Source: Aspidiotus rigidus
Taxonomy: Eukaryota > Arthropoda > Insecta > Hemiptera > Diaspididae
NCBI GenBank assembly: GCA_035079385.1
Contig: JAVHKY010000003.1
Location: forward strand, 13,185,501 to 13,249,500
Direction: 5' to 3'
DNA length: 64,000 bases
Every line of letters begins with the position of its first letter. The stretch's first letter is position 1. A program made the position numbers and the translations under genes. The notes beneath the pieces were generated by a model. That model did not search any database. It saw nothing but the letters and a program-made list of their open reading frames with translations, and was not told the origin of the DNA. Shown here piece by piece: positions 5,035 to 50,603 of the stretch.

Positions 5035-5039
5035 GCTTT

Positions 5040-17037: not shown

Positions 17038-17284
17038 CTTACGAGAATCTAAGCACAGTACTATTGATCGAATTCCGGTGCAATGCTGTTAAACGCTGTT
17101 CATAACCCTTATCATAATAATATTACATGTCGATACATTGGCCTACATCTGATTCACTTTTGTGTACCATACGTGCGAAAAAAAGAGGTTGAAGACATGT
17201 ATCTTCCTGTGCTTATTCTTATCTCTCTTTTCTCACACTCTCTCTCTTACGGCTTGTACAGTATTACTGTACCGTATACGTATT

Positions 17285-29400: not shown

Positions 29401-29479
29401 GCACATATCAGCACAAATCGAGCACAATTCATTTTGACCGAAAAAATTACAAATTTCAAAAAAGGGGAGCTCCCTAGAG

Positions 29480-31180
29480 ATTATTTCGTATATCTTCGGA
29501 AGGGAGCAAACACAAAATATAATTTTTGCAGCACAATTCAGCACAAATCAAGCACAATTCATTTTACCAAAAAAACTTGAAAATCCCAAAAAGGGGGGCT
29601 ATAGTTTCACCAGCCCCCTCCACAGAGACTTTTTTGTATATATTCGGAAGGGGGCAAGCACAAAACGTAATTCTTGCAGCACAATTCAGCACAAATCGAG
29701 CACAATTCATTTTACCAAAAAAAATTGAAAATCTCAAAAAGGGGGGCTATCGTTTCACCACCCCCCAGAGACTTTTTTGTATATCTTCGGAAGGGGACAA
29801 ACACAAAATATGATTTTTGCAGCACAATTCAGCAAAAATTGAGCACAGTTCATTTTACCAAAAAAAAAAAAAAATGAAAATTTCAAAAAGGCTATCATTT
29901 CACCAGCCCCCCACCCACAGAGTCTTTTTTGTATATCTTCGGAAGGGGGCAAGCACAAAACGTAATTCTTGCAGCACAATTCAGCACAAATCGAGCACAA
30001 TTCATTTTACCAAAAAAAAAATTGAAAATCTCAAAAAGGAGGCTATCATTTCACCACCCCCCAGAGACTTTTTTGTATATCTTCGGAAGGGGACAAGCAC
30101 AAAACATGGTTTTTGCAGCACAATTCAGCAAAAATTGAGCACAATTCATTTTGCCCAAAAAAAATTGAAAATTTCAAAAAGGGGGGCTATCGTTTCACCA
30201 GCCCCCCAGAGACTTTTTTGTATATCTTCGGAAGGGGACAAGCACAAAACATGGTTTTTGCAGCACAATTCAGCAAAAATTGAGCACAATTCATTTTGCC
30301 CAAAAAAAATTGAAAATTTCAAAAAGGGGGGCTATAGTTTCACCAGCCCCCTCCACAGAGACTTTTTTGTATATATTCGGAAGGGGGCAAGCACAAAACG
30401 TAATTCTTGCAGCACAATTCAGCACAAATCGAGCACAATTCATTTTACCAAAAAAAATTGAAAATCTCAAAAAGGGGGGCTATCGTTTCACCACCCCCCA
30501 GAGACTTTTTTGTATATCTTCGGAAGGGGACAAACACAAAACATGATTTTTGAAGCACAATTCAGCAAAAATTGAGCACAGTTCATTTTACCAAAAAAAA
30601 AAAAAATGAAAATTTCAAAAAGGCTATCATTTCACCAGCCCCCCACCCACAGAGTCTTTTTTGTATATCTTCGGAAGGGGGCAAGCACAAAACGTAATTC
30701 TTGCAGCACAATTCAGCACAAATTGAGCACAATTCATTTTGCCCAAAAAAAATTGAAAATTTCAAAAAGGGGGGCTATCGTTTCACCAGCCCCCCAGAGA
30801 CTTTTTTGTATATCTTCGGAAGGGGACAAGCACAAAACATGGTTTTTGCAGCACATTTCAGCAAAAATTGAGCACAATTCATCTTGCCCAAAAAAAATTG
30901 AAAATTTCAAAAAGGGGGGCTATCGTTTCACCAGCCCCCCAGAAACTTTTTTTTATATCTTCGGAAGGGGACAAGCACAAAACATGATTTTTGCAGCACA
31001 ATTCAGCAAAAATTGAGCACAATTCATTTTGCCAAAAAAAAATTGAAAATCTTAAAAAGGGGGGCCATCGTTTCATTAGCCCCTCCTTGAGACTTTTTTG
31101 TATATCTTCGTATGGGGGCAAGCACAAAACATAATTTTTGCACAACAATTCAGCACAAATTGAGCACAATTCATTTTACC
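29480..31180. repeat. Tandem array, unit about 146 bp, about 12 copies
   Basis: Each unit carries GTATATCTTCGGAAGGGG, GCACAATTCAGCACAAAT and TTTACCAAAAAAA. The copies start near 29486, 29637, 29780, 29930, 30078, 30222, 30370, 30514, 30664, 30808, 30955 and 31100. A block of five units (29596-30328) is repeated with few changes at 30329-31050. Long open frames on both strands are by-products of this array. Confidence 0.85.
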
Positions 31181-31222
31181 AAAAAAATTTCAAAATTTCA
31201 AGAAGGGGGCCAGTGAAATGGA

Positions 31223-33345: not shown

Positions 33346-33351
33346 TTTATT
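33346..33351 (-). terminator. Poly(A) signal after terminal exon C
   Basis: AATAAA on the minus strand, about 150 bases beyond the stop of the exon at 33504. Confidence 0.5.
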
Positions 33352-33503: not shown

Positions 33504-33799
33504 TTAATAAACTCTCTTACTTGCTACCAAGTTTCTTCTTCGTTTGTAACTATTTTTACGATGCATCTGATGGAAAGCGGACTGAGGGTAGCCAGAATGG
33601 TACGAAGTTTCCGATTGGCCAACGAATCTCCTCAAACTTCCGACCAACGATATAATTAATGCTAATTTACTTATCATTAACGTCTTACCGCCTAATATTA
33701 AGAGGAATTTAAAGCTTAGTGGTATAAGTATGGAGTACAATATCATGTAAGCTCCTACAATAATGGGAAACACCCTTCGATATTGATGCCTGACTCGAC
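33504..33799 (-). CDS. Osiris-type gene, alternative terminal exon C
   Basis: Begins directly after the acceptor TAATGATTTCAG; the first two bases complete a glycine codon. The 97 residues read RVRHQYRRVFPIIVGAY, then a hydrophobic stretch, then LGGKTLMISKLALIISL, the conserved core of DUF1676/Osiris proteins (GGK-x3-ISKLAL). The tail is basic and short. The same acceptor sequence and phase are used by exons A and B, so it can splice to the exon at 42088-42215. Use of this exon would give a product of about 772 aa. It has its own downstream AATAAA. It could instead be the last exon of a separate, otherwise lost Osiris gene; no other 5' exon was found nearby. Confidence 0.72.
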
Positions 33800-33860
33800 C
33801 TGAAATCATTACGTAACAAAATTACGATATATTGATTACTAGTGCCTAATATTTCAGCAT

Positions 33861-33866
33861 TTTATT
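33861..33866 (-). terminator. Poly(A) signal after terminal exon B
   Basis: AATAAA on the minus strand between exon B (stop at 34404) and exon C (start at 33799), so a transcript ending in exon B could be cut before exon C. Confidence 0.4.
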
Positions 33867-34403
33867 TACAATTTGCACAAACTACACGTAGATTTTCACT
33901 TTTTAATTGGAAATAAATAAGAACGAAAACTCGACTGGGTCGCAATCGAGACTTTTTCGAAAAATTAATTTTAATTGGAAATTTTCTCGCGTCGTTGTTA
34001 TAATGATTTCAGGTCGCGACAAGACTAGACGAGTAGAATTTATAGGAAAAACTCGAGGCGTGGACGAAGAAATGTCAAATCTCGGTGGGAATCCTATCAG
34101 TTGGCCGCACTGTAGGCAAAAGAACGATTGTGAGCTTTCAGTACGCCTTATTTCAAGACTTAAATATTAGGAAATATTTACTACAAGACGAAGTAATCCG
34201 TGGTTTTGTCGTTGTTAGAGTGAGTCGATTCTCGCGATACCGCAAAATAAATAACGATTCGATTTTCAGTCCTGTGAGCGGCGACCCTTTTCTAATTTCA
34301 AAATATTGAAATGAAGTTCCGAACGGTAAACATTACAACTTTTAATCGACGAACAGAATCACTTAAATTGTATTTCGAACACGTCACTGTTGATCCTTTT
34401 CTT

Positions 34404-34729
34404 TCATTCGATTTCCTCCCAATGAGAATACTCCAATGGTTCGTCGTAAACGTTCGAGCTTTTTTTAAATTCTTCCCTACGCCAAGGATCGTAGTACGGA
34501 GGATACGCGTAATATGGAGGGTAGTGCACTTGCGGAGCATCATTCGAATAGCCCATATATTTTCTGATACTACCCATCATCGCGATAATCAAAGATATTT
34601 TGCTAATGAGTATGGATTTAGTACCGAGTAATGTCATAAATTTAAAACCTAAGGGTATTAACACGGTAGACAATATCATATAGGCGCCGACCATAATAGG
34701 AAACACTCTACGATAATGTCGCCGACGAC
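34404..34729 (-). CDS. Osiris-type gene, alternative terminal exon B
   Basis: Acceptor is a strong pyrimidine tract ending TTTTTCATGATTTCAG. The 107 residues start RRRHYRRVFPIMVGAYMI and include LGTKSILISKISLIIAM, matching the DUF1676 core; here the second G of GGK is T, and one residue is missing near the start compared with exons A and C. The tail is Tyr/Pro-rich (VHYPPYYAYPPYYDPW), typical of cuticle-associated Osiris tails. Same phase as A and C; product about 782 aa. Only about 600 bases separate its stop from exon C, too little for an independent gene. Confidence 0.75.
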
Positions 34730-35629
34730 CTGAAATCATGAAAAATTAAAAAGAAAAAGTAAAAATAAAATATCAAATAGAAAGTTTCTTGCAACGTGGT
34801 GCCATCTCTTATTTCATATAGTATAAAACTGTTCGACGTATCTTGGAATATTTTCGAATAGTAAGATGATGATTTTGTTTGACGATGATTTCAGATCGAC
34901 GGCGCATTATGATTCTCAAACTATGCCCCAGGAATGTACAGGGTGACCATCAAGTCTATCAAACGAACTCTAATGCTCTTTGAATAAATCCTACAGAAAA
35001 AGTAGAGCCACGTAAGGTCAGAAAAGTCCAAACTTTCTCCCACAAACACCTGAAATAAACGGAAAATAAGAAAAAATGTTGGCTACTTTTTCATTTTCTT
35101 GTCACCAAATTATGTACCCTCATCGTATTTTCGCACTTTCATGACTCGCCCCCCGCCCTGGAAAAGTCTTTCAATCATATTTAAAATATCTGAAAGGTCC
35201 AAGTAAACAATTCTACTGCTCTAGATAAGAGAACTCTTATGAGTTGGCCCATCATCAGTTGTGTCGCTACTGAAGAACAAAGCCTTAAACTTATAACATT
35301 GTGATCTTATCGGTTACAACAAATTCAAGGGGCTTGTAAAACTCTACAAAGAGAACCGCTCGATGGGGCCACTGGTTAATAGCCTCCACTCCATTTTACA
35401 AGATAGCAGATTCTTGTGAGAACATTACCAGATCGCATCTGAACAAAGCATCAGGAGCAACAGGGAGCGGATAGAGGGATTGGACGAAGAGGAAATCAAG
35501 AGCAACGATGAACTGGATCCATGTGACATACATGTTTGGTACCGTGCCAAAGGAGGATCTGATGGGAACCCTAACGGGCTGAAGTACGCAAAAATAGTTG
35601 AAGAGACCGTAGACCAGAACTACTGCTGA

Positions 35630-36125
35630 TTCAAGTTCAGGAGTAGCGATGAAATAACCGCTGTCTCCAATACTGGCCGAGATATCCGTGAATGATTTGG
35701 AAAACAAAATATTGAAAAGCAGCAAGTTGAGAATCTCGATCAAACACTAGACTAGAAGGGGCATAGATGATAATATCTTAATTGTGTGGTCAGGCACTCA
35801 TAAAAACAGGCGGACCAATTCTTTCTGGAAACGAATGCGATGAATGAGAGCATCAAGGGCATAAGGCCATTAACTATACGGACCTAACAACAGGATAGAA
35901 TACAAAATCTACATGAAGTCTACGCATACCGATACCATCATTTGAAATCACTCCTACTACCACCCCAGGCACAAGTTGGCGACAATTCAGAACTACTGCT
36001 ACCGAGCAATTTCTTTTCTGAAGAACAATGAAGAGAAGAGGAAAGAAATTGAGATATTAAAGAAGATCGCAGCAGCCAATGGCCATTCTAAAGGCATTAT
36101 TGAGGAAGTCGTTGGAAGAGAACCC
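35630..36125 (+). pseudogene. Decayed Penelope-like reverse transcriptase (C-terminal half)
   Basis: In the plus frames one reads GVAMK(stop)PLSPILAEISVNDLE, the GxxMGSPLSPxLA motif with a broken residue. About 200 bases on comes KSTHTDTII(stop)NHSYYHP, RHKLATIQNYCYRAISFL and then ILKKIAAANGHSKGIIEE. These are the KPTHTDRY, HPxxHK and NGY blocks of PLE reverse transcriptases. Several stops and frame changes show it is dead. It is a different lineage from the copies at 25.9 and 31.5 kb. It sits inside the long intron between terminal exons A and B. Confidence 0.7.
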
Positions 36126-36529
36126 ATGACAGCACAGTGAGAAATTACTAGGAGCCAGAAGTACTTTCATGGTAAAGAGGATCAGCAATGACTGAACTGG
36201 AGAGAAGGACAATGGAAACAAGCTCAGCTGCGAGCAGTCGGAGAAAGTTCAATATCTGGAGAAAGGAGCATGAAACATCGAGGGAAGTCACTGTTTGGCA
36301 AACACTACAACAAAGAACAGCCCAATGGTGAAGGAATATTTGAAGTCATAATGTAAAGAACCGCACAAATACAAGGAAACTCTAGAAAGAGATAAAGATT
36401 GCAAAAGCAAAGCGGAGAAAAACCAGCCTCTTGAACAATGTAATCACATTTGACAGGGAGAGATTATTCAGCTTGGTAGACTTGAAAAGAACAGAATTGA
36501 CCGATAATATAGCAGCAAGCCTGAGCACG

Positions 36530-36903
36530 TAAACCAATCCCGACACAGCATAGACCGATTCCCCGGTGACGTCACAGTGTTGATAACAGTGAGCGATGGT
36601 GAGTCAAAGTACCCGTGTTTGTAATCGATATTACGATTATTGGGCCAATCATGACATCGATTTCCATAAGAATACACAGGGAACGATTCGATCACATACA
36701 GATATTCAAAAACAAGATGTTCCTAATGTATTAGAGATCTCTATCTAGAATCTAGAAGTTCTCTGGAATTCAAATATGTAGCTTTTATTGCTAACGTACT
36801 TCTTGTTCTTGAATACTAGTGAATGATCGAAACGTTCCCTGTGTATTCTTATGGGATTCTAAAATGGCTGCCCCAAAGCCAGCAGCAGAGAACAAGCATT
36901 CAA
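36530..36903 (+). repeat. Repeat Z, copy 1
   Basis: Starts CCGGTGACGTCACAGTGTTG and runs through GATATTACGATTATTGGGCC, ACACAGGGAACGATTC and CCCAAAGCCAGCAGCAGAGA. Other copies: 54299-54600 (inverted), 55222-55435 and 56860-56966. No coding sequence. Confidence 0.75.
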
Positions 36904-37836
36904 TGGACTGTGTTATTGTGACGTTATTCGTTTGGCAAGAGTACTCATTCTGCAGGAAATTTATCCAATCGCAAATTTGCTCCCCATAAAAACATGGGAA
37001 GCAAATCGATCATATGGTATTATTTAAAAATGAGAAAGAATTAAGGGGAAAAAAGTTCATTTTCAGAAGTCGATTACTCACACACTATAAATGTGACCTG
37101 TCACAAGAGAACCCCCCTTAGTGTCCCAAAAATCGTTTTTCAGGTTTTCAGCGATCCCTTATAATTGAAACCCGCTCTTTCACGTGGTGGTATTGAAAAA
37201 ATTCCAAAAAATTTATTTATAGGCCTTAGGGGTCTTCAAAGTTGGGGGAAAATTTCAAATTTCTGGAAAAATTTTTGGAATTTGATGAAATTCAGTTTTA
37301 GGGGTAATTTTGGGTCGCTGAACATGAATCTGACCCATAAATTTCATTCCAATGCATATTTTTGGGTCTACGGATCAAAACATGGAGCTAAGATGCAATT
37401 TTTTAGGCGATTCTCCAGCACTTTTTTCATCAAATTCAAAATTTTAAATTATTAACGCGCAAATAATATAAAAAGCACTATTGAATTGTATTCTTGAATC
37501 ATTAATCTACAACTGATAAAATTTTCAGCCAAATTGATCGCATAATGACACGAAAAACTGATTTTGAAGTTAGAATTATCGCTCCTGTAAAATTATATTT
37601 AGGACGCTAAGGGGGGTTCTCTTGTGACAGGTCACAAATATTGTATAAACTTTTTTCCGAAAAATCCGTTTTAATTATTGATTAATTTCATACTGATCTT
37701 TGCTTCCCGTGTATTTCTTATGGGAGCAAATTTCCCATTGGATAAATTTCTTGCAGAATGAGTACTCTTGCCAAACAAATCGATATCGGTCGATATTTTT
37801 GTTATCACAAATAACACAGTCCATCAAAATCAAAGA
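36904..37836. mobile_element. Palindromic-ended element inserted in repeat Z
   Basis: The left end ATGGACTGTGTTATTGTGAC and the right end, inverted, ATGGACTGTGTTATTTGTGA match over about 100 bases (GTTTGGCAAGAGTACTCATT on the left recurs inverted near 37763). Repeat Z copy at 56955-56975 reads straight from AGCATTGA to ATCAAAATCAAAG where this element sits here, showing the empty site. The element encloses a second one at 37093-37635. Confidence 0.65.
37093..37635. mobile_element. Inner MITE-like element
   Basis: Termini GTGACCTGTCACAAGAGAAC and its inverted copy at the right; the match extends about 35 bases (ACCCCCCTTAG). Length 543 bp, no transposase. The target duplication is not clear (AAAT on both sides at best). 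The open frame 37165-37455 is low complexity. Confidence 0.65.
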
Positions 37837-37844
37837 TGTTGACG

Positions 37845-37853
37845 TCACGGGAA
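37845..37853. repeat. Target-site duplication TCACGGGAA (left)
   Basis: Identical to 39635-39643. Confidence 0.85.
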
Positions 37854-39634
37854 GCGAGTTTATTTTATGTAACCGACATGGGGCTACCGCGTTGGTTTAC
37901 TGCCATACTGGGAGTAAGAGGCAAGTAAGAGTGATGCCGCGGGACTTTGAAATATTTTTGTACTTCTTAGACTTGTATTTTCAACTGTTGGACCTTGAAA
38001 TACTTTCAACTGTGGGACTTTGAAATATTTTTAAATTGTAGGACTTTGAACAAATTGTAGGACTTTGAAATATTTTCATAAGTGGACTTGTAGTATTTTT
38101 CATTTTCAATTCTCGGACATGGAAATATTTTCAACTGTTGAACTTGGAATTATTTTCTTTAAAATATTTTTATACTTCTTGGACTTGTAAAATTTTTCAT
38201 TTTCAATTCTTGGACTTTGAATTATTTTCATAAGTGGACTTGTAAAATTTTTCATTTTCATTTCTCGGACTTGGAAATATTTTCAACTGTGGGACTTTGA
38301 AATATTTTTAAACTGTAGGACTTTGAAATATTTTCAAGTGTTGGACTTGAAAATATTTTCAAATTGTAGGACTTTGAAATATTTTCATAAGTGGACTTGT
38401 AGAATTTTTCATTTTCAATTCTCGGACTTGGAAATATTTTCAACTGTTGAACTTGGAATTATTTCCTTTAAAATATTTTTATACTTCTTGGACTTGTAAA
38501 ATTTTCTCATTTTTGGGTTGAAAATATTACGAAGTCCGACGATCAAAAATGAAAAATTTTTGCAAATCCAAGAAGTATGAAAATATTTTAAAGTCCAACA
38601 ATTGGAAAATAATTCCAAGTCCGATAGTTGAAAATATTTCAAAGAAAATAATTCCGAGTCCAACAGTTGAAAATATTTTCAAGTCCGAGAATCGAAAATG
38701 AAAAATTCTACAAGTCCACTCATGAAAATATTTCAAAGTCCCACAATTTGAAAATAATTCTAAGTTCAACAATTGAAAATATTTCCAAGTCCGAGAATTG
38801 AAAATGAAAAATTTTACAAGTCCACTTACGAAAATATTCCAAGTCCCACAATTTGAAAATAATTCCAAGTCCAACTGTTGAAAATAATTCCGAATCCAAC
38901 AGTTGAAAATAATTCCAAGTCCAACGGTTGAAAATATTTTCAAGTCCGAGAATCGAAAATGAAAAATTCTACAAGTCCACTCATGAAAATCTTTCAAAGT
39001 CCCACAATTTGAAAATAATTCCAAGTCCGAGAATTGATAATGAAAAATTTTACAAGCCCACTTATGAAAATATTTCAAGTCCCACAATTTGAAAATAATT
39101 CCAAGTCCAACAGTTGAAAATATTTCAAAGTCCAACAGTTGAAAATAATTCCGAATCCAACAGTTGAAAATATTTCAAAGAAAATAATTCCAAGTCCAAC
39201 AATTGAAAATATTTTCAAGTCCGAGAATCAAAAATGAAAAATTCTACAAGTCCACTCATGAAAATATTTCAAAGTCCCACAATTTGAAAATAATTCCAAG
39301 TTCAACAATTGAAAATATTTCCAAGTCCGAGAATTGAAAATGAAAAATTTTACTAGTCCACTTATGAAAATATTTCAAGTGCCACAATTTGAAAATAATT
39401 CCAAGTCCAACAGTTGAAAACATTTCAAAGTCTAACCGTTGAAAATAATTCCGAATCCAACAGTTGAAAATATTTCAAAGTCCAAGAATTGAAAATGAAA
39501 AATTTTACAAGTCTAAAGAAGTACAAAAATATATATTGCCAAGTCCCGCGGCATCACTCTTACTCGCCTCTTACTCCCAGTGTGGCAGTAAACCGACGCG
39601 GTAGCCCCATGTCGGTTACATAAAATAAACTTGC
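37854..39634. mobile_element. Foldback element with 9-bp target duplication
   Basis: Ends GCGAGTTTATTTTATGTAAC and inverted GCAAGTTTATTTTATGTAAC. The unique outer part of each arm is about 120 bp. The inside is two opposed arrays of degenerate units of about 35-45 bp containing GACTTTGAAATATTTTCA or AATTTTTCATTTTCAATTC, changing direction near 38520. Foldback (FB) elements known from Drosophila have this design and a 9-bp duplication, which agrees with TCACGGGAA here. No transposase is encoded; open frames on both strands are array translations. Confidence 0.82.
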
Positions 39635-39643
39635 TCACGGGAA
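39635..39643. repeat. Target-site duplication TCACGGGAA (right)
   Basis: Identical to 37845-37853. Confidence 0.85.
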
Positions 39644-39654
39644 ATCGGTCTATT

Positions 39655-39770
39655 GTTGCGTAACAGATAAGATCACAGTGGTATACTAGGAAACTGTTTA
39701 AGGCCTTGGTACTCAGTAGCGACACAACTGATGACGGGGTAACACCCGTAAGTATTCTTGTAAAGCTAAC
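39655..39770. repeat. Inverted partner of the 35230-35330 repeat
   Basis: CTCAGTAGCGACACAACTGATGA-type text is the inverse of CATCAGTTGTGTCGCTACTG near 35252. The two form a widely spaced inverted pair about 4.4 kb apart around the PLE relic and foldback elements. Confidence 0.55.
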
Positions 39771-40441
39771 TAAGGTATTTTCAACACCTCATCCTACTTG
39801 AATGACTTTCAATCATGCTACAGACCCAATAAGACCTACAGAAGGGGGGAAAAAAAAAGATTCTTATTGGCGGACTCTGAGAATGCTCGGAAGATCAAAG
39901 CCCCTAAAATAACTACCTCATATCCAACCTATGAATCTCCTCCTTCTACTCGTTTAGTCGTGCATAATAAGCGGTATGTGCACAACTTGTCCATGATTGA
40001 GATTTGAAGGAATAAATCAGAACTCAATACTTTTTATGTTCGAAAAAAACTACTTGGGAAATGTCGAAAGTGCTTTTCGGTGTTTTACCAAACAAAATCA
40101 CCTGAGTCCATAGTATCGTCATTCTTGCGGTCGGCTACTCCTGTACTTTGCAAGTACCACACCTATTACCTTACATTTTTAACCACATTCGAGACCTTCT
40201 CTACTAGGTATACAAGACGACCCTCACTGGTGTCCAAAATGACAAGTAAAAGTTTTTGATGATCCCTTTTTGAGGAGGAAGTAGGAACATGGTCTCCTCC
40301 GCCCGTCGAGAAATTTTCCCGGAAGTCCGCCAATGATGTTTTTACTACCTACGAACAACTATTATTATAATAATATTGGGTTTGAGTTCTAGATTCAGCT
40401 AAATTTTCTTACGCAAGAAAACATCAATTTTCTTAACCAAA

Positions 40442-40803
40442 TCAGTCTAGAAGAAGATAAGAGTACGTGTAATCAATTGGTATACGTTTGTAACGTTTAT
40501 CAGATTTCCGTCTAACGTGTTGGTCGTAGTGGAAAGGGTGGTAGGGTACTGGCGGTAAAGGTGGCGGCAGCGGCGGTGAATGATGGTGTTGGTGATTATT
40601 GGTGGATATGTCGACGTGCGCGCCAAAAAATTTACTGAAACTACTAAATAGCGCAAATAACAGAGCTAGTTTACTAATGATGAACGATTTGCCGCCCATC
40701 ATTGCCATAAACTGAAACACTATCGGTACTATTACGGCCGTGATTGTCATGTATATGCCGGCGACCACCGGGAAGACCCGGCGGAAACGATGGCGTCGTC
40801 GAC
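40442..40803 (-). CDS. Osiris-type gene, alternative terminal exon A
   Basis: Closest of the three terminal exons to the shared 5' part. Acceptor GTTTTTCATGATTTCAG; two bases complete the Gly codon. The 119 residues start RRRHRFRRVFPVVAGIYM, pass through a hydrophobic stretch and GGKSFIISKLALLFALF, the DUF1676 core, then a His/Pro-rich tail (HHHSPPLPPPLPP) and a basic end with YTYSYLL. With exons 1 and 2 it gives about 794 aa. Osiris proteins are secretory or endosomal membrane proteins made during cuticle formation in insects. The intron to exon 2 is 1.28 kb, so this is likely the default ending. Confidence 0.82.
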
Positions 40804-40949
40804 CTGAAATCATGAAAAACAAAATGCTAATATCGCGATTTTGTACGTCGTTTCGTTTGTCGGCGTGGCAAGCCTTTTTTTTTACGAGAGTGTATTCGAC
40901 ATTTTTATGTAATTGCTATAAAATTCTCGTTTCGGTATTCTGAAGTTCC

Positions 40950-42080
40950 TTAAAAATCGCGCGCTATAGTCAAATACAGCGCCGTAATTCCTCGTGATCG
41001 TTAAATTCGTTACTGTCGAATTAAAATCACGCATGTTTATAAGTTAAGTAGAAACTTATAAAAGTTTCACAATATTCTCGATACTTTTTAGCTGTTTCTT
41101 TTACAATGTTTTCCGACAAGTTTGATGTAACGACATAACGTTTAGGCCGAACGCCGAAAAAGAAACAAAAACTTTTTAATCTAAATAGCAGATGACTTTA
41201 TCGTTGAATTATTAAAAGAGCGTTCGAAATGCGAACAAATTTGCAATCAAAGGCTCGTATAGTTTTACTGATTTATACGTATGGTGTTGAGCCTACGTAT
41301 AAAATTTATACCTCGGTAATTGAAAACAGATATTCATATTTTTATTTTAATCAAAAAATCAATTTATTGAGTTTTAAAATTTTCGTTGTTGGGTTCGTAA
41401 ATGAGCACCACGCACTGGAGCAAAAACTTGAACGACACGGAGAGAATTCATGAATTGCAGGATTTCTAATGGTGTGCACACGACTCAACTATAAACAGCG
41501 AGACAGATCCTTTAGTTTCCATGACTAAATAGCAGTTAAGAGAGTGGCCAGCCTCTCATTCATGACTCAGATTTTCTATATATCAGACATAATTTTGTGA
41601 CAGCCTTCTCAAAAGGAAACCCATTATTATTTTTGTCTGAGATACATCCTCAAAAAATTGTCCGCGTCAGGCTAAGTGAACTTGACTTACTTTAGAAACT
41701 TTTAGTAGTGTTTAAAGGTTCCATATAGCTATGCGAGGGAGAGGGAAACAACAAACTGTATTTCCGAAGGCGACCTAATTTACGCTCGTGTCCTGTAAAA
41801 AAAGTTTTTCAAATCTTTAAGAGCTTAGCCAGCTAAACAAAATCGTCCCATTCTTTAGAAGGCTACAAAAATTTCATTCATTCAAGTAGGGGTTCTGAAT
41901 GGGAGGGAGCCATAACCTAGACTAGGGTCTGGGGAAAAAATCCAACTTTTAAGATATATAATGTGGCGTGGCCAGAGAGTTTTTGAGGGGAGTTTAAACA
42001 AAACTTTATGTAATACTAATGAAGCACTTATTCTCAACAAATTTCAAGAACCAAAATCTAATTTTACGAGATGTATTCAT
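40950..42080. other. Intron between Osiris exon 2 and terminal exon A
   Basis: AT-rich; no further exon with matching phase recognised. Confidence 0.45.
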
Positions 42081-42087
42081 TACTCAC

Positions 42088-42215
42088 CCTCTACTTGCGA
42101 ATTGCCATTTTCCAACGGATTAGCCAAATTTATTTTCAGTGAGTGCGTTGCAAAAAGTTTCTGAATCCCGCCTAATAAACTTGAAAACCAGTCTGAATCC
42201 TCATCTGTGGCAGAT
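42088..42215 (-). CDS. Osiris-type gene, exon 2
   Basis: A 128-nt exon found by phase. The acceptor TTTTACCTATCTAG supplies one base that completes the codon left open by exon 1 (AG|A), and the donor G|GTGAGT leaves one base that completes Gly with any of the three terminal exons. It encodes 42 whole codons, including DWFSSLLGGIQKLFATHSLK and INLANPLENG. The F-x-x-THSLK-(I/V)-x-L segment is the characteristic block between the two-cysteine region and DUF1676 in Osiris proteins. This exon makes the gene model continuous. It has no ATG. Confidence 0.85.
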
Positions 42216-42301
42216 CTAGATAGGTAAAATTAAACTTATTTAAGTTTATCACAAAATGTTTCTCTGTGATTGCAGTGGTAAATCGTTCAGTATTACTCGT
42301 G

Positions 42302-42500
42302 TTAGTCCATGGTCCGAAATAAAAAATAGTGGTTTTTGGTACCATTAGGGCGACGGTACAAAGCGTCGCTTCGGGATATATTAGTAGGGACGATACTTAC
42401 TAAAAAAAAAAAAAATAGTAGATATCTGAGAAGGGTAGCTATTCGAAATGGTGGCCAATCCAAAATGGCGGATTGGCTTTGTGGTAAAAGGCTAAGTCTA
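42302..42500. repeat. Dispersed repeat, related copy inverted near 48205-48345
   Basis: CCAAAATGGCGGATTGGCTT and the flanking AGAAGGGTAGCTATTC return in reverse near 48220-48260 (AAGCCAATCCGCCATTTTGA). Lies in the intron between Osiris exons 1 and 2. Confidence 0.5.
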
Positions 42501-42579
42501 GGGGTCAAATTTTCTCAATTTTTGACATGTTCCATGTCTTTTCTGATTTTGAAACTCGAGTGTACACCCCACCCCCCCC

Positions 42580-43060
42580 CCCCCTCAAGAGAAATCTCTA
42601 CCCCGTGGATGACTCAGAAATTCGCGAGTACACCCCGCGTAATAATAATAATTAATAATAAATAAATAAATAATTAAATAATTAAATAAATAAATAATTA
42701 AATAATTAATATAATTATTAATTGGAAAATCTCTACCCCGTGGGTGATTCAGAAATTTGCGAGTACACCCCGCGTGATAATAATAAATAATTAATTAATT
42801 GATAATTAAATAATTAATAATTAAATAATTAATATAATTAAATGATGAAATAAATAAATAATTAAATAATTAATATAATTAATTATTAGAAAATCTCTAC
42901 CCCGTGGGTGATTCAGAAATTCGCGAGTACACCCCGCGTAATAATAATAAATAATTAATTAATTAATTAATTAATTAATTAATTAATCAATAATTAAATA
43001 AATAAATAAATAAATAAATAATTAAATAATTAATATAATTAATAATTAGAAAATTTTCCA
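42580..43060. repeat. Conserved 45-bp block repeated in AATTA-rich DNA
   Basis: The block CTCTACCCCGTGGGTGATTC ... AATTCGCGAGTACACCCCGC occurs at about 42595, 42732 and 42896, separated by 90-110 bases made almost only of AATAA/AATTA units. The same block in reverse orientation occurs twice at 62607-62825. Confidence 0.75.
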
Positions 43061-43069
43061 AGTCCCTCT

Positions 43070-43600
43070 TCCTATCATATATGGCTGGATAGTCGAAATT
43101 TTTTCAAGTCCCCTAGACTTGAATTTTCTCATACCATTCCAATACAACAGCGAGATCGCTCGTTCGCCTCACGAAAGTTGATACCTCAAAATATAGAACA
43201 CCCACAATTACCTCAAAATATTTCTCATACAAGACTTATACGACGCCAAGATAGGTAAAGAGGTAAACGAATAATATCTCACGAACACTAAACCTAGTAC
43301 AAGAATTAATAATAAATAAATAAATAAATAAATAATATTAAATAAATAAATAATTGAATAATTAAATAATTAAATAAATGAAGGCTGGATAGTCGAAATT
43401 TTTCCAAGTCCCCTAGACTTGAATTGTCACATACCATTCCAATACAACAGCGAGACAGGGGGCGAACGAGCGGAGCGAGTTCGCGCTTCCTCGTATTTCT
43501 CATAGAAGACTTATACGACGCCATGATAGGTAAAGGGGTAAACGAATAATATCTCACGAACACTACTTGACCTAGTAGAAGCCTAGACTGAAATATTTCA
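43070..43600. repeat. Short direct duplications around an AATAA tract
   Basis: GGCTGGATAGTCGAAATTTT followed by CAAGTCCCCTAGACTTGAAT occurs at about 43083 and 43384, and GACTTATACGACGCCA occurs at about 43228 and 43508. The second copy contains an extra palindrome, GCGAACGAGCGGAGCGAGTTCGC. Confidence 0.6.
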
Positions 43601-43609
43601 AGATGACTC

Positions 43610-45320
43610 ATAAAATATAAAAGACATGGAACATGATTTTCATTTATTTGGCTATGCCAGAAAATTTTTTTTTCTCACAAGTACCACAGTTGAATTGCTA
43701 TCTTTGATCTGGGTTAGATTTGTGGGTCGACATGTGCGTCTTCAGAGAATTTTTTTATGTGAATTTTTTTTTCTGATGAAAATCAACTTTTGCATAGAAT
43801 GCGATAATTTCGAATTTTCGAAATTGTGATTTGTAGTCAAGTTTTTTCTAATGAAAGAAAATTGTGTGCCAAATAACATATTGAACTTCCCATTCCCATA
43901 TCTTTTGTGGCACGTTCTAGCCCCCAATATTAATTTTTTGCAAATATCTCGAAAAATTGAGCTCCATGTTTTACCCAAAGAATATTTTCTGTGAATTTTT
44001 TCAACTGTCATCTCTATCGGCTGTCTCCCGAAATCTCAGAAATTTTGACAAACTCTGGAAGAAAGTCCAGGTAGTCTATTTCAAAGAAAATTTCGAAAAA
44101 AAAAAATTTTCATTCGAAACTTTATTTATTGCAGCTCGATTTTTCAAAAGACCCACTATAACTCGATTTTTTCCTAAAATCGATAACTTTGGAACGTTTT
44201 TCAAACCTATAATTAGACTGACAATTGTAGCTTCACAAACTACGAAAACGGCGAAATCTGCCTCAAACACTGGCCCTAGCCAAAGAGGCGGTCCTACCGC
44301 GAGAGGGAAAATAAATCAGGGATGACATAACATTTTTTGATTTTTTTTGGAAATACGTAGAAATGCTCTAAATTAGGCCAAAAGAAATAAAATTTGTGAA
44401 TTTCCAGTCTTCGAGAGACACTATATAGTAGTCCCGGACGTAATAGTCGTCGTACAATATTTGCGCTTTTGCGGAGAGATAATGCGCGTGGTCAATAGGG
44501 ATCCAACCCACGGAATTAAACGAGGGAAGGCAGGAACCTGTTTTATGATGCACATTATGATACGAGAGGGGCTTAGAATATTTTAGAAGAACTATCCAAA
44601 TCTTATAGCGTTTGAAACGTTGCATGTCTGGCTTACTGAAGGGGCTAAATCAGTTGGTGTATGAAGTATTGCATATCTAGTTACTTGAAGGAGCTATCAT
44701 TCAGGATACATACACCGACCGATAAGCTATATATGATAGGACGGGGACTTAGAAAAGTTTCGAGCTCCAAGTTTCTCCAGCCAGGCGGCGGATGGCGAAC
44801 GTTCTTTCCACCCCCTTTGATAAACTGGTTCCCTGTTTTAAAATACATGTGTAATTTCAATCATCAGGGAAAAGGCATCAATGCAAACACATTCAGAAAA
44901 TAAAGCGAAAAAGAATGTCGAGTGACATTAACATTCCTTTCAAAATGAAAATAAAAATAGTGAAATAAAATCAAAAGTTGCCAAAATTACTCCAAAAATC
45001 CCAGGAATCATCCACCAGAGATTTTGAGGAAACCAAAAAGTAAAAAACTCAAGAGAAAGTAACCCTTTATAGAATAACTCTCAATGAGGGGAAAAATGGA
45101 TAGAGGATCGAACCCCCTATCAAGAAATGTAATAATAATGCTGACAACACGGGGCAAAAAATGACTCAATTCAGTAAAGTAAAGGTGCGCGAACTGCTAC
45201 TTAGCCCAGCCCCAAATCAGTAAGAAGAAGGCATTAGGTACAACCTAGGCGAGTAGAAAAAAAAAGGGGGAAGGCAACATTCGGCTAGAAACAGTAAATT
45301 AATAAACGTAAAATGAAGGG
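43610..45320. other. No gene seen (Osiris intron 1)
   Basis: AT-rich with scattered short repeats such as GGAACCTGTTTTATGA at 44535. No exon recognised. Confidence 0.4.
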
Positions 45321-45329
45321 GGGAAAAAT

Positions 45330-46745
45330 CTCGTTGTTTCAAGCAAAAGTGGCAAGGTGGTTACTCTAAAGTCTGTCTTCGGTCATGAGCTTACAGTGGG
45401 AGATCGGGAAGGGCCTCCTGTCAATTGAGGCGGGTGAATCTGTAAAATTTTGCGTGAAGACATTTGAAAGATTGAACAAGGGGCCTTGATCGTTCTCTAA
45501 CGGAAAGCTTAACGAACAACGGTCTCGGGATATCCTCCTCTGCACTGGCTGACAAAACAGGAATTTTCTTGATTTCACCTGCTTAGATAAAACGGGGCTG
45601 TTACAGTTCTCTCCTTGCGAGGTCACACTGGGACGCGATCTTCGCGGTATGTTTTTCTCCATTGCCTGAAACAACAAGTATTTGCACCTACTCACCCAAA
45701 TAGATTGAACACAGGGCTCCAACTGATCTCTCACCGCGAGCTTATGGCAGACAACAATCTTCCTCATACCCTTCCCTACTTCGCGTTTCTCAACGGGAAA
45801 TTTTTCGGGTTTGTCCGCCTCTATTGAACAGGGGGTCCTTACCCGATCTCCCACCGCTAGCTCATGACCAAAGACAGACTTTAGAGTAACCTTGCCACCT
45901 CGGCGTGAAACCACAAGATTTTGTGACTTTGCCCGTCCTTTTACGGGGCCTATTCAATCTTTCACCAAGAGCTCATAACGAAAGACGAGCTTCACGGTAT
46001 CACTCCCTCCCTCGCGTGGACGTACAAGAATTTTCTGGCATCCGCCTACCTCTATCGAAGAGACGGGGCCTCAGTCGATCTTTTACCGCGAGCATGTAGT
46101 GGAAAACGAAGTCGCCGGCATCATTCCCTCCTTGGCGGGAAACAACGAGAGTTTTTGCGGATGCACCCGCCTTGGTCATACACGGGGCCTCAGTCGATCT
46201 CTTACCGCGGGCATGCAATGGAAAACGATGCCGCCGGTATCATTCCCTCCTTGGCGAGTAACAATCTGTGTTTTTGCGGAAGTACCCGCCTCAATCATAC
46301 ACGGGGCCTCAGTCGATCTATGTTGAACCCAGGGATCATTCGCCTGACTCTGTCAAACACGGGGTCTCGATCGTTCTCTTACCACGAGCTGATGACGAAA
46401 GTCGAGCTTGACGGTATCATTCTCTCCTCCGGATGAAAACCCGAGAACTAAAAGCGGGGTTGGCATGTCTCCCACCCTAAATTTCTTGTTCACTTTTGTC
46501 AAGTTCCACTTACCTTATTAGGTTAGGACAGTTTCCACCAGATTGAAAGTCAATATTTCTGCAAGTTCTTCACATACAAATAGCTTGATAGTCAAAAATA
46601 TTCCAAGTCTCATAGAACAAACAGGTTCCCAGTTAAAATTTGGAAAAATGAGGGGCGGGTATTGTTTTCACAGTAGCCCCACCGAAGATTGTGAGTATTT
46701 AAAGAAAGAGGAAACCACAAAACATTTCAACACTAATTGAGCACA
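45330..46745. mobile_element. Partial foldback element (core plus one arm)
   Basis: Reverse complement of the core and left arm of the 26.7-31.2 kb element, matching 28450 down to about 27060 in order, with many small changes. The other arm is missing. The open frame at 45366-45914 (minus) is the counterpart of 27838-28416 and is intact, sharing AVGDRVRTPCSIEADKPEKF and NCNSPVLSKQVKSRKFLFCQ. Confidence 0.75.
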
Positions 46746-46749
46746 TTTC

Positions 46750-47960
46750 ATTCAGCTAGCCCCGCACACTGTTTCATGCAAGTGGGGGTTGGAACAAACA
46801 GAAATAAGGGTGGAACAAACCGGAACAAGCGTAGAACAAACGATTCACACTATTTTCAGGTCAAAATTGGAAACGGAGGGGGGCTGTCGTGTCACTAACC
46901 CCGCACACTATTTCATGGGGAGGGGGGTTGGAACAAACGGAAATAAGGGTGGAACAAACCGGAACAAGCGTAGAACAAACGATTCACACTATTTTCAGGT
47001 CAAAATTGGAAACGGAGGGGGGCTGTCGTGTCACTAACCCCGCACACTATTTCATGGGGAAGGGGGTTGGAATAAACAGAAATAAGGGTGGAACAAACCG
47101 GAACAAACGTAGAACAAATGATTTACACTATCTTGAGGTCAAAATTGGAAATGGGGGAGGGGCTGTCGTATCACTAACCCCGCACACTGTTTCATGGGGA
47201 TGGGGGTTGGAACAAACAGAAATAAGGGTGGAACAAACCGGAACAAAAGTAGAACAAACGATTCACAATATTTTCAGGTCAAAATTGGAAACGGGAGGCT
47301 GTCGTGTCACTAACCCCGCACACTATTTCATGGGGAGGGGGGTTGGAACAAACAGAAATAAGGGTGGAACAAACCGGAACAAAAGTAGAACAAACGATTC
47401 ACAATATTTTGAGGTCAAAATTGGTAACGGGGGGGGGGCTGTCGTGTCACTAACCCCGCACACTATTTCATGGAGAGGGGGGTTGGAACAAACGGAAATA
47501 AGGGTGGAACAAACCGGAGCAAAAGTAGAACGAACGATTCGCACTATTTTGAGGTCAAAATTGGAAATGGGGGTGGGGGCTGTCGTGTCACTAACCCCGC
47601 ACACTATTTGATGGGGATGGGGGTTGGAACAAACAGAAATAAGGGTGGAACAAACCGGAACAAAAGTAGAACAAACGATTCACAATATTTTGAGGTCAAA
47701 ATTGGAAACGGGGGGCTGTCGTGTCACTAACCCCGCACACTATTTCATGGGGATGGGGGTTGGAACAAACCGGAACCAAAGTAGAACAAACGATTCACAC
47801 TATTTTGAGGTCAAAATTGGGAATGGGGGGGGGGCTGTCGTGTCACGAACCCCGCACACTGTTTCATGGGGATGGGGGTTGGAACAAACAGAAATAAGGG
47901 TGGAACAAACGTAGAACAAACGATTCACACTATTTTTGGGTGAATATTCGACATTGGGGG
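46750..47960. repeat. Tandem array, unit about 139 bp, about 9 copies
   Basis: Each unit contains GTGTCACTAACCCCGCACAC, GGTGGAACAAACCGGAACAA and ACGATTCACACTATTTT. Units start near 46759, 46891, 47031, 47170, 47308, 47447, 47587, 47726 and 47844. It takes the place that the GCACAATTCAGCAC array has in the 26.7-kb element but is a different sequence. Open frames here translate the array. Confidence 0.85.
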
Positions 47961-47999
47961 GGGGATGCTGAAATCGACCTTCAACTTTTGAGAAACTCT

Positions 48000-48700
48000 T
48001 AAAGTTGACAATTTCATTTATAATAAATTTGAAAGATTTTTTTCTAGGACACAATGTTTTGGTATATTTGTAGAAATTGATTTTGTGGGCCAGAACGTGC
48101 CACAAAAAATTTAGCTCATGATATGCGGGCGGGAAGTTCAATAAAATATTTAATACATTATTTTCTCTCCTTAGAAAAGAAAAAATAGAAAATTAAACCC
48201 ATACAGCATGAGATATTTGTTACCACAAAGCCAATCCGCCATTTTGAATAGTTACTCTTCTCAGATGACTATAGTAAATATCACCGCACTAATACATCCT
48301 GAAGTGAAGCTTCATCTTCCCAAATGGTACCGCATTTTCATAGGGCTCACTGACATAACGACTTTCATTGTTCATAGGATTGGGAAACAACATATTTGTT
48401 TTTTTCGAATTATGTAGGTACATCTCTTCAAGAATTTCAAGTAAAATACCCATATGAGCTTCTGCATATAAAGTTTGCTCTCAGGACTTGAGCTTTACTT
48501 GACCCTTATTCTAAAATCAAAAGACATCGAATACCTTCATGTGTAGTTCCCGCGCCTCATAGCGGCAGGCAAGTGTACCTTCTCGCATATTGAAATTTTG
48601 TAGCTCAATAAGATACGTTAAGCGCCCCAAAAAACCGCGTTAACTAAATATAAATAACCTGTTCCTATATTTTTCAAGGAACACAAAAATTACACGATTT
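48000..48700. other. No gene seen
   Basis: Contains a repeat with GGCACGTTCT/AGAACGTGCC text shared with about 43910 and the inverted copy of the 42302 repeat. Otherwise nothing recognised. Confidence 0.4.
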
Positions 48701-48708
48701 ACACTTAC

Positions 48709-50603
48709 CTACTAGATTGCTCGACGGACGTATTATTCTCCTTCACCAAACTCACGGAATCCGTTATTTTGATGACGTCACTTTTTACCGCTCGGTCCAG
48801 TATCGTGAAAGTAATTTTTTTCAAACAGCTGAACGTGTTACCGTCTAAAATTTCAGTCTTATCGGTATCGGAAGAACATTCGACCATTAACTTTTTAACG
48901 AGAAAGATATTTGCTTTTAATGTCACGGGGATTAGGTCGGAGAATTGAATTCCAGTCATATTGAATAGAAAGTTCCAAGTATCATCATTTCCGCGAATTT
49001 TCATATTCATCGGCTTCCCCTCAACCCTGTCGATAATACGGGGGTCCTCCTTCTTTGTAGAATTTTCTGTTCGCTGCGTCTTATGAGCGCTTATTGTAGT
49101 TTGATTTGTCGCTTGGTCGTCCGCTATTTCATTGTCATTTCTTTCCACTATATCGTATATTTCGGTCGAATTTTCGAATTTCATTTCGTCGCTTCGCTGC
49201 TCCGCGTTCGTGTCCTCCGTCTCGTCATCCATTTTTCCTCCGCCTTCTTGATTATCGCCTCCAAAACTTTCGAATAAATGATTATAATATTCACCCTGCG
49301 AAGGAGTACTTTCTGATTCGGTAATCACAATAGGCTTAGAAAGATACGAGGATTTATCAGACGTTTTATAAGAAGCTTCGTTTTCAAGCATTTCAATTTG
49401 TTTTTCGGTTGTAATCCTTTTCGAATTTGGATCATCTTGGAAAGCGTGTCCGGATTTCGTCGCATTAAAAAGTCGACGATTTCTTTTGTTCGTAGTTTCT
49501 GTAGTGACGTGCTCTTCTTTTCTCGTCGATAATCGTACAGCTGAAAATCGGGGATTGTCTTTGAGTTTATCTGTCAGCGGTTTGGGCTCGGTCACTGTAC
49601 TAATTTCCTCCTCTTTATCAGTAGGATAAAACGTATTATAAAGATCATGCCAATCTTCTGTATCACCGATGGGTTCTGTCGTTGTTACAACTTCTTCATT
49701 CTTTTTCGTCGTGGTCATCGGTCTGAAGTTATCCTTATTATTGATGTCTATCACCTCGTAATTATTCCTCAAGAAATTGGGACGGGCTGTCGTGACTGCG
49801 ATGAATGAGTTTGGTGACAATGAATACACCTGGTTACTAGTGGTTGAGGGAGTCGAGTATGTGACGAACGGATCGCTGTTAGTTTCTTGCATCATCATAT
49901 CATTCTCGTAAACAATAGGGGGCTCTACTTCCGGAGCCTTCATTTTAATAAATGGTAGTACTTTGCTACTTTGATCATGTGGCTGGTAATGCATCCACAT
50001 AATATCGTCCTCTTTCATCTCTATCCGACTTTTTTTCTTCCTCTCTGGATATTGTCTAAAATACGGTCTAGAACTATCCGCGATGACTCTGTCGTTTGGA
50101 TAGGCGTTGTGTCGGACTCGAGGTGAAATATTAGTCTCGTTCGGGACCAATACTCTACGGAATGAGTGCGGTAAACTTTGACTCCTCGCGGGAGTATTGT
50201 GAAGAATTTTTGGATTATGCTTAAAATCAATGGATGTATGCTTTGGCGCCATATCCGATTTCCATTTCCGCGATATGTAGGGTTGTGGTTTATCTCTGCG
50301 GCCGCCGATTTTAACGACAGTTTCATGGTGTTGGTTTTTCAATCTGGGATCTCGATCATGGTTCATATTCTTTGACGCCGTAATTGGTCTCCATCCGTTT
50401 GAATATTGAACAGCTTTTTCCGTGGTGCTAGCTTCGTTATTTTTCTCGATCACACCGACGTTAGCCGAATTCTCGTGAAAGTTCCACTCGCCTAAATACC
50501 TCCTGGTGTGATATCGATCTGCGATATTCACCATTGAGTCTGTAGCGAGGGAAGCGCTTATGAAGCTGAAATAAAGGCCGACGAATATGATGGTTGATTG
50601 CAT
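48709..50603 (-). CDS. Osiris-type gene, exon 1 (signal peptide, long polar region, two-cysteine block)
   Basis: I start at the ATG at 50603, which opens a signal peptide (MQSTIIFVGLYFSFISAS). An acceptor (ATATTTTTCAG) ends at 50615, so an untranslated exon lies upstream; the in-frame ATG at 50684 is intronic. The exon encodes 631 residues and ends AG|GTAAGT, leaving two bases. Residues 20-550 are polar, rich in Thr, Glu, Asn and Lys, with TTTEP- and TEK-type patches. The last 90 residues hold the Osiris two-cysteine region: VTLKANIFLVKKLMVECSS ... FSCLKKITFTILDRAVKSDV ... ITDSVSLVK. Most Osiris proteins are 200-400 aa, so the polar insertion is unusual. The function is inferred: a secretory-pathway membrane protein of cuticle-forming cells. 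Confidence 0.82.

What the first reader, a model, noticed from the sequence alone, without database searches (positions are those of the whole stretch)
33504..50603. Osiris-type gene with three in-phase alternative terminal exons
Exon 1 (48709-50603) joins in phase to exon 2 (42088-42215). The donor of exon 2 is in phase with three homologous terminal exons (40442, 34404, 33504), each starting after the same ATGATTTCAG|GTC acceptor and each encoding the DUF1676 hydrophobic core with a different tail. AATAAA signals lie after B and C. The tails differ in character: His/Pro-rich, Tyr/Pro-rich and basic. Osiris clusters are known as tandem whole genes; one gene choosing among three membrane-core exons would be a new arrangement. 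Not found: any other exon 1 or exon 2 for B and C.
Basis: partly seen in the sequence, partly recalled or inferred. Interest (0 to 1): 0.88.

Follow-up and report, generated by a model that had tools for sequence, protein, structure and literature searches.

The report
One insect gene, three alternative endings
An insect gene of the Osiris kind appears to carry three interchangeable last exons, all kept by evolution in relatives, and two short RNA elements that could fold onto their splice sites and decide which ending is used.

Summary
Exon 1 (48709-50603), exon 2 (42088-42215) and terminal exons A (40442-40803), B (34404-34729) and C (33504-33799), minus strand, join in phase. C-terminal parts of the three joined proteins match DUF1676 over nearly its whole length (88.7, 88.3, 91.8 bits; cut-off 24.3). 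No second exon 1 or 2 was seen in the window by tblastn. A, B and C are not decayed copies: 20 relatives sort into A, B and C types with type-specific tails. Only one is named, a B type from the lac insect Kerria lacca.

ATGATTTCAG, which ends the intron at all three acceptors, occurs five times in 64 kb: the acceptors and two exact reverse complements, 145 and 193 nt upstream of those of B and C. B and C fold into hairpins that bury the splice site; A does not. Each arm can pair with every acceptor. I read this as alternative last exons chosen by competing RNA pairing, a known kind (Drosophila PGRP-LC, pip, CG42235), not found in my searches for Osiris-type genes. No transcript evidence; conservation of the arms is untested.

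The parts
48709..50603 (-). Exon 1 (coding part): hydrophobic signal-like N-terminus, long low-complexity region, two-Cys region and start of DUF1676
   Evidence: Open frame, donor AG|GTAAGT; PF07898 positions 5-46, 27.6 bits
42088..42215 (-). Exon 2, middle of DUF1676, phase-1 donor AGG|GTGAGT
   Evidence: In phase with exon 1 and A/B/C; PF07898 61-96, 15.3 bits alone, below the cut-off
40442..40803 (-). Terminal exon A: hydrophobic core plus His/Pro-rich tail
   Evidence: PF07898 27.4 bits alone, joined 88.7; relatives P0008, P0009, P0011, P0017, P0019, P0022
34404..34729 (-). Terminal exon B: hydrophobic core plus Tyr/Pro tail ending in an acidic stretch
   Evidence: PF07898 26.8 bits alone, joined 88.3; relatives P0001-P0007
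33504..33799 (-). Terminal exon C: hydrophobic core plus basic tail
   Evidence: PF07898 30.6 bits alone, joined 91.8; relatives P0010, P0012-P0016, P0018
40800..40813 (-). Acceptor motif ATGATTTCAG|GTCG of A
   Evidence: no nearby complement, local fold z +0.99
34726..34739 (-). Acceptor motif ATGATTTCAG|GTCG of B
   Evidence: buried in predicted stem
33796..33809 (-). Acceptor motif ATGATTTCAG|GTCG of C
   Evidence: buried in predicted stem
34885..34904 (-). Arm B: pairs with B acceptor 34720-34739 (18 of 20 Watson-Crick plus one G-U), 145-nt loop; can also pair with A and C acceptors
34001..34021 (-). Arm C: pairs with C acceptor 33791-33811 (19 of 21), 189-nt loop; exact complement of all 14 nt ATGATTTCAGGTCG; can also pair with A and B acceptors
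40341..40346 (-). AGTAAA, weak candidate poly(A) signal of A
   Evidence: no AATAAA/ATTAAA on this strand from A's stop until 37864
34341..34346 (-). ATTAAA, candidate poly(A) signal of B
33861..33866 (-). AATAAA, second candidate poly(A) signal of B, 61 nt before exon C
33346..33351 (-). AATAAA, candidate poly(A) signal of C

Best explanation
This is one DUF1676 (Osiris-like) gene that makes three membrane or secreted proteins sharing about 674 residues and differing in the last hydrophobic core and tail. Exon 2's single phase-1 donor is joined to one of three tandemly duplicated terminal exons, each with its own stop codon and 3' end. The choice is probably set, or at least biased, by competing RNA pairing. 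Two arms, one upstream of B and one upstream of C, can each base-pair across the acceptor of any of the three exons and bury the AG. In the local fold B and C are masked and A is free (A as default). When an arm pairs instead with an upstream acceptor, that exon is masked and the downstream one released. Shown: exon anatomy, phase, coding conservation of A/B/C types in relatives, sequence complementarity. Inferred: actual splicing, masking, and who flips the switch.
For: Phase and open frames. All three C-terminal joins give near-full-length DUF1676 matches. No other exon 1/2 by tblastn in the window. Purifying selection: codon-position pattern; 15, 0 and 0 of 5000 neutral replicates as conserved. 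20 relatives fall into A/B/C types with type-specific tails (median within-type tail z 12.4, 20.7, 7.7; between types 3.5, 2.3, 4.1); A and C branches supported 97/99 and 98/98. ATGATTTCAG is found 5 times in 64 kb, at the three acceptors and two complementary arms; expected 0.43, 0 of 100 shuffles reach 5. Hairpins at B and C have z -3.33 and -3.81, A +0.99. Among 1,724-1,725 tiles of the gene region the best-binding tile for each of A, B and C lies on an arm; the exon-2 acceptor has no such affinity. Shuffled-arm controls: 0 or 1 of 500 as low for all six acceptor-arm pairs, 152 and 267 of 500 for the exon-2 acceptor. Arm B's match to B's own first 25 exon bases is above chance (z 5.4).
Against: No transcript data. 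The motif also reads ATG-ATT-TCA in frame in all three exons, so an internal start cannot be excluded. The Kerria lacca B-type relative is listed as a free-standing 119-aa protein beginning MISGR. Searches with exon 1 and with the joined protein found no relatives, so linkage of three endings to one exon 1 is not confirmed in a second species. Conservation of the arms outside this window is untested; they could be inverted copies made by mutation. Both-sided differences between B and C stems at exon +6, +8, +9 keep pairing, but beyond the first four exon bases arm C does not match exon C above chance (first-25 test z 0.0), so covariation is weak support. B's exact inverted match (10 nt) is not unusual alone: 48 of 851 AG sites reach it. 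B is not recovered as a clade (AU p 0.178, not rejected), and on the core alone A and C supports fall to 90/100 and 86/83. Tail z ranges overlap between and within types (up to 15.1 between A and B), and types were assigned by eye. In an artificial joined fold the unconstrained optimum was A:arm C and B:arm B with C free, not the neighbour-only scheme.
Confidence: 0.57

Rival explanations
1. One gene with three alternative terminal exons, but the choice is made by polyadenylation, splice-site strength or protein factors; the inverted arms are quasi-palindromes without function.
For: Homologous alternative terminal exons selected by poly(A) site are known (PMC3228551 passages). A lacks AATAAA/ATTAAA nearby while B and C have them. 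Beyond the first 25 exon bases the arms show no exon similarity above noise (z -1.0 to 2.0), and arm C's first 25 show none to exon C (z 0.0).
Against: Two arms both centred on the acceptor motif, with strong local stems and shuffled-arm controls. A 10-nt intron end identical in three copies whose other intron sequence has largely diverged needs a reason, which pairing supplies.
Confidence: 0.24
2. B and C are ends of separate genes: either tandem Osiris duplicates whose 5' exons lie elsewhere or are too diverged to see, or short genes starting at the in-frame ATG of MISGR.
For: Osiris genes are described as duplicating as whole genes (PMC3284338). Kerria B-type is listed as a 119-aa stand-alone protein. 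The in-frame ATG occurs in all three exons, and Met in 17 of the 19 A/B/C-type relatives that reach the position, though 15 of those 17 begin at it, by gene-caller choice.
Against: No exon 1/2-like sequence seen in the 5.7 kb between A and B or the 0.6 kb between B and C (limited sensitivity). The Met is not universal (P0003 has Val, P0022 Lys). The third bases of ATT, TCA and GGT are identical in the three window exons although 32-38 of 59-60 third positions differ in the core, which fits a splice element better than a start codon. A protein starting there would lack the N-terminal hydrophobic segment, the two-Cys region and most of DUF1676.
Confidence: 0.14
3. Terminal exons B and C are joined to exon 2 by trans-splicing, as in mod(mdg4) or lola of Drosophila.
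For: Alternative 3'-terminal exons with a common 5' part occur in those genes (PMC3228551 passages).
Against: All exons are on one strand in one 17-kb unit; nothing requires two transcripts.
Confidence: 0.03
4. B and C are decaying exon copies.
For: None beyond their position downstream of a complete gene.
Against: Open frames, codon-position pattern and type-specific tails conserved in relatives.
Confidence: 0.02

Closest known systems
Osiris / DUF1676 (PF07898) insect gene family
   Same: Hydrophobic N-terminus, two-Cys region, DUF1676 and hydrophobic segments in order
   Different: Known paralogues are described as whole genes in tandem (PMC3284338); here only the last exon is triplicated. 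No AQXLAY in any tail. About 587 residues precede the DUF1676 match.
Competing RNA pairing at 3' variable regions (Drosophila PGRP-LC, pip, CG42235; Pan et al. 2018, not held, known to me from passages of PMC9013439)
   Same: Alternative 3' regions (in pip, tandem homologous terminal exons) chosen one at a time, with competing RNA structures
   Different: Here the pairing element includes the 3' splice site and exon start, with three acceptors facing two arms. Pan et al. was not read, so overlap of its elements with acceptors cannot be excluded.
Dscam1 docking-site/selector-sequence and bidirectional pairing models of mutually exclusive exons (PMC6071210, part 1 and passages)
   Same: Several mutually complementary copies that exclude one another; duplication of a stem arm as origin
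   Different: Dscam exons are internal, and pairing of a selector promotes the exon next to it; here pairing would mask the acceptor of a terminal exon
Homologous alternative 3'-terminal exons such as human CapZ-beta (PMC3228551 passages)
   Same: Homologous terminal exons with separate poly(A) sites
   Different: No RNA pairing was mentioned for it in the passages seen; different gene family

Membership tests
Osiris family (five features of Shah et al. 2012, PMC3284338) | N-terminal hydrophobic secretion signal | tested here: met
   Hydrophobic stretch at residues 3-21, 19-residue mean 1.63; hydropathy only, no signal-peptide predictor run
Osiris family (five features of Shah et al. 2012, PMC3284338) | Two-Cys region | tested here: met
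   Two Cys in exon 1 at residues 576 and 593, counted by hand from the translation, on either side of the start of the DUF1676 match at 588; not compared with a family alignment
Osiris family (five features of Shah et al. 2012, PMC3284338) | DUF1676 (PF07898) | tested here: met
   86.4 bits for full joined A; 88.7/88.3/91.8 for C-terminal joins; cut-off 24.3
Osiris family (five features of Shah et al. 2012, PMC3284338) | Hydrophobic putative transmembrane domain | tested here: met
   Maximum 19-residue hydropathy 2.16, 2.08 and 2.20 in A, B and C; no transmembrane predictor run
Osiris family (five features of Shah et al. 2012, PMC3284338) | AQXLAY motif in the C-terminal region | tested here: not met
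   No AQ.LAY in A, B or C. Shah et al. say most, not all, members have the features; hence 'Osiris-like' here
Osiris family (five features of Shah et al. 2012, PMC3284338) | Place in the syntenic Osiris cluster | tested here: inconclusive
   No other DUF1676 gene seen in the window by tblastn with this gene's exons; the wider genome could not be searched (genome search not answered)
Alternative last exons chosen by competing RNA pairing | Homologous tandem terminal exons in the same phase behind one donor | tested here: met
Alternative last exons chosen by competing RNA pairing | Mutually competing complementary elements near the alternative acceptors | tested here: met
   none near A
Alternative last exons chosen by competing RNA pairing | Elements conserved or covarying between species | not testable with these tools
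   Only proteins, no DNA, of relatives were obtained. Comparison of the B and C stems within the window is inconclusive
Alternative last exons chosen by competing RNA pairing | One terminal exon per transcript, dependent on pairing | not testable with these tools
   No RNA data or bench work

The most novel reading that the evidence does not exclude
An RNA 'musical chairs' switch: three acceptors and two interchangeable masking arms in the order A, arm B, B, arm C, C. If each arm occupies one acceptor, exactly one terminal exon is left open, so mutual exclusion follows from counting alone. With neighbour pairing, A-free is arm B on B and arm C on C; B-free is arm B on A and arm C on C; C-free is arm B on A and arm C on B. 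The duplex energies lie close together (-35.4 to -40.0 kcal/mol), as a switch would need.
Probability: 0.25. Interest if true: 0.78.

Novelty: new variant of a known kind. Interest (0 to 1): 0.62.

Why it matters
Osiris-type genes are described as diversifying by whole-gene duplication in a strikingly conserved cluster. Here the same kind of diversity in membrane core and tail seems to be packed into one gene by triplicating its last exon, long enough ago for the three types to recur in several relatives (inferred to be scale insects). If the arms work as read, this is a compact three-way RNA switch, small enough to test in one minigene, in which the masked site is the splice acceptor itself. 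It would test the idea (Ivanov and Pervouchine, PMC6071210) that duplicating an exon with half of a stem creates mutually exclusive splicing. It also warns annotators: the Kerria B-type exon is listed as a separate small protein.

Tried and rejected
Pseudogene exons: rejected. Second exon 1/2 in the window: not found by tblastn; the profile scan covered 33504-42087 of the minus strand only. Arms as part of a longer inverted exon copy: exon-side similarity beyond 25 nt is at noise (z -1.0 to 2.0). Within the first 25 nt arm B matches exon B (z 5.4) but arm C does not match exon C (z 0.0); weak intron-side similarity of arm C to the C intron (z 3.2) and B intron (z 2.4) was not pursued. These z-scores use mononucleotide shuffles. 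A local hairpin at A: none. Longest exact inverted match over 851 AG sites of the gene region: C scores 16, reached elsewhere only in the repeat array near 38.4 kb or at an AG beside C; B scores 10 (48 of 851 sites reach 10 or more), A 7, exon 2 6. So arm B rests on carrying the same motif and on its 20-nt stem, not on that count.

Relatives by DNA: one scan each of genome contigs and viral contigs gave none. Relatives of exon 1 and of the joined protein: none. Osiris splicing in print: listings, word searches of two papers (PMC3284338, PMC12825958), passages of PMC3755909 and three of four parts of PMC3284338 showed no alternative terminal exons in an Osiris gene. That covers only the held open-licence library, and the other listed papers were not opened.

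Unanswered: the genome search 'own' was tried 10 times and never reached, so the rest of the genome is unexamined.
Full report
WHAT IS THERE. On the minus strand, exon 1 (48709-50603, 1895 nt from the ATG) ends in AG|GTAAGT. Exon 2 (42088-42215, 128 nt) has acceptor CTATCTAG| and donor AGG|GTGAGT. Three exons follow: A (40442-40803), B (34404-34729) and C (33504-33799), each after ATGATTTCAG|GTCG. All three joins are in phase and open to a stop. The joined A protein (794 aa) matches DUF1676, PF07898, with 86.4 bits, E 3.1e-24. C-terminal joins with A, B and C (256, 244, 234 aa) score 88.7, 88.3 and 91.8 bits over profile positions 4-170 (C: 4-168). Single pieces cover parts of the profile: exon 1 positions 5-46, exon 2 61-96, terminal exons about 118-170. 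So the terminal exons supply the part that exons 1 and 2 lack.

NO OTHER 5' EXONS SEEN. tblastn with exon 1, exon 2, A, B and C against the whole window found only the known places with convincing scores (best other exon-2 hit E 0.28). A DUF1676 profile scan of 33504-42087 in three minus-strand frames, stops as X, gave two stretches in one frame (the better at C, profile 110-168; the place of the other is not printed, but B lies in that frame), one at A in another frame (105-170), and none in the third. Exon 2 alone scores only 15.3 bits, so a diverged exon 2 could be missed.

A, B AND C ARE REAL CODING EXONS. Between them the cores keep 28 of 59 (A-B), 27 of 60 (A-C) and 37 of 59 (B-C) residues. 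Mismatches at codon positions 1/2/3 are 27/7/32, 28/10/38 and 22/6/34. NG86 dN is 0.37, 0.42 and 0.27; dS is 1.54, 4.15 and not computable. Random substitution of the same load is as conservative in 15, 0 and 0 of 5000 replicates and creates a stop in 80-85%.

RELATIVES. A profile of A, B and C against the public protein set gave 24 proteins at E up to 1 among 820 candidates (sequences). Two (P0023, P0024) are other DUF1676 ends; two (P0020, P0021) form a pair of which P0021 is named Macrosiphum euphorbiae, an aphid. I sorted the other 20 by eye into A type (6), B type (7) and C type (7), each with its own tail. Only P0006, a B type, carries a name: Kerria lacca, a scale insect. That the window and most relatives are scale insects is therefore inferred. 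In the tree of 27 rows A and C are each one side of a branch with support 97/99 and 98/98; B is not, but a B clade is not rejected (AU p 0.178). On the core alone A and C stay together at 90/100 and 86/83 and B is again not one group. The program warned that the aphid pair and A meet by long branches. Tails resemble each other within types (median z 12.4, 20.7, 7.7) more than between types (3.5, 2.3, 4.1), but the ranges overlap (A-B up to 15.1; C-C from 5.1), the shuffles do not model low-complexity runs, and the types were assigned partly from the tails. P0022, whose tail looks frame-shifted, was left out of that tail count. P0009 (A type) and P0010 (C type) both list a contig of 6,939 bases, which suggests, without proving, that they are neighbours in another species. 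Exon 1 and the joined protein found no relatives, so a second species with one shared exon 1 has not been seen.

THE ACCEPTOR MOTIF AND ITS COMPLEMENTS. Upstream of the exons little aligns among the three copies, except that the last 10 intron bases and first 4 exon bases are identical in all three (A and B share six more). ATGATTTCAG occurs five times in 64 kb, expectation 0.43, 0 of 100 shuffles with five. Three are the acceptors; the other two are reverse complements at 34885-34894 and 34003-34012, upstream of B and C on the transcript. The inverted pairs are 20 nt at 90% (B: 34720-34739 with 34885-34904, 145 nt apart) and 21 nt at 90% (C: 33791-33811 with 34001-34021, 189 nt apart). Arm C complements all 14 bases ATGATTTCAGGTCG exactly; arm B has one change, which gives a G-U pair.

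FOLDING. B region: -48 kcal/mol, z -3.33, 1 of 200 shuffles as low. C region: -58.1, z -3.81, 0 of 200. In both the acceptor AG and exon start lie in a stem with the arm. A region: z +0.99, 166 of 200 as low, no such stem. In duplex scans against 1,724 or 1,725 tiles of the gene region, the best tile for each of the A, B and C acceptors lies on an arm; for A, one low-complexity tile near 42530 ranks third. The exon-2 acceptor shows no affinity for the arms. With 80-nt acceptor windows the six acceptor-arm energies are -35.4 to -40.0 kcal/mol, with 0 or 1 of 500 shuffled arms as low; for the exon-2 acceptor 152 and 267 of 500. B and C stems differ by changes on both sides at exon +6, +8 and +9 that keep pairing (read), but stem C also has mismatches at +5 and +7, and in a separate test arm C's first 25 bases beyond the motif do not match exon C above chance (z 0.0) while arm B's match exon B (z 5.4). 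So covariation is suggestive for B at best, and independent inverted copying is not excluded. In a folded construct with an artificial linker the three one-exon-free states were -310.8 (A), -307.5 (B) and -313.9 (C), no arm pairing -295.9, and the unconstrained optimum -318.7 was A:arm C and B:arm B with C free. These numbers ignore the 5.9 kb between A and arm B and co-transcriptional order.

MECHANISM. Most likely (0.57): alternative last exons chosen, or biased, by competing RNA pairing. Shown: anatomy, phase, coding conservation, complementarity. Inferred: that the joins occur, that pairing masks the acceptors, that A is the default because it has no local mask and B and C do, and that long-range pairing of an arm with an upstream acceptor releases a downstream exon. 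The in-frame ATG (MISGR) is the main awkward fact. Met is present in 17 of the 19 A/B/C-type relatives that reach that position, but 15 of those 17 begin there, by gene-caller choice, and P0003 and P0022 lack it. All 19 keep Ile-Ser before the splice point, as expected if the nucleotides ATTTCAG are what is conserved; the DNA of these relatives was not seen.

COMPARISON. Osiris: four of the five features of Shah et al. (PMC3284338, parts 1-3 of 4 read) are met, two of them by hydropathy and one by eye; AQXLAY is not. Osiris paralogues there are whole genes. RNA-pairing control of 3' variable regions is described for PGRP-LC, CG42235 and pip in passages of PMC9013439 citing Pan et al. 2018, which is not held. 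Competing structures made by duplicating a stem arm are proposed in PMC6071210 (part 1 and passages). So the principle is known. What I did not find in print (listings and abstract starts) is its use in an Osiris-type gene, or a layout in which the competing element is the acceptor itself with two masks for three exons; without Pan et al. the second point is open.

VERDICT. Observation confirmed; interpretation supported by anatomy and evolution but not by transcripts; new variant of a known kind; interest 0.62.

Noticed in passing
window 1186-2562 (+): Long open frame with a calcineurin-like phosphoesterase match (PF00149, 33.5 bits).
   Followed up: partly
window 11486-12928 (+): 480-residue open frame made almost wholly of ankyrin repeats (PF12796, 221.1 bits).
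   Followed up: partly
window 3941-5038 (-): Reverse transcriptase domain (PF00078, 128.4 bits).
   Followed up: partly
window 16102-17088 (-): FLYWCH zinc finger plus MULE transposase domain (PF04500, PF10551), apparently part of a transposon.
   Followed up: partly
window 29468-31209, 37976-39496 and 46756-47910: Three large tandem-repeat arrays. The middle one, with opposite-strand repeats, lies between exons A and B and accounts for part of that long gap.
   Followed up: partly
window 40793-40840 and 34857-34905: The A acceptor region and the arm B region are inverted copies at 75.5% over 49 nt, so arm B may derive from, or be tuned to, A.
   Followed up: partly
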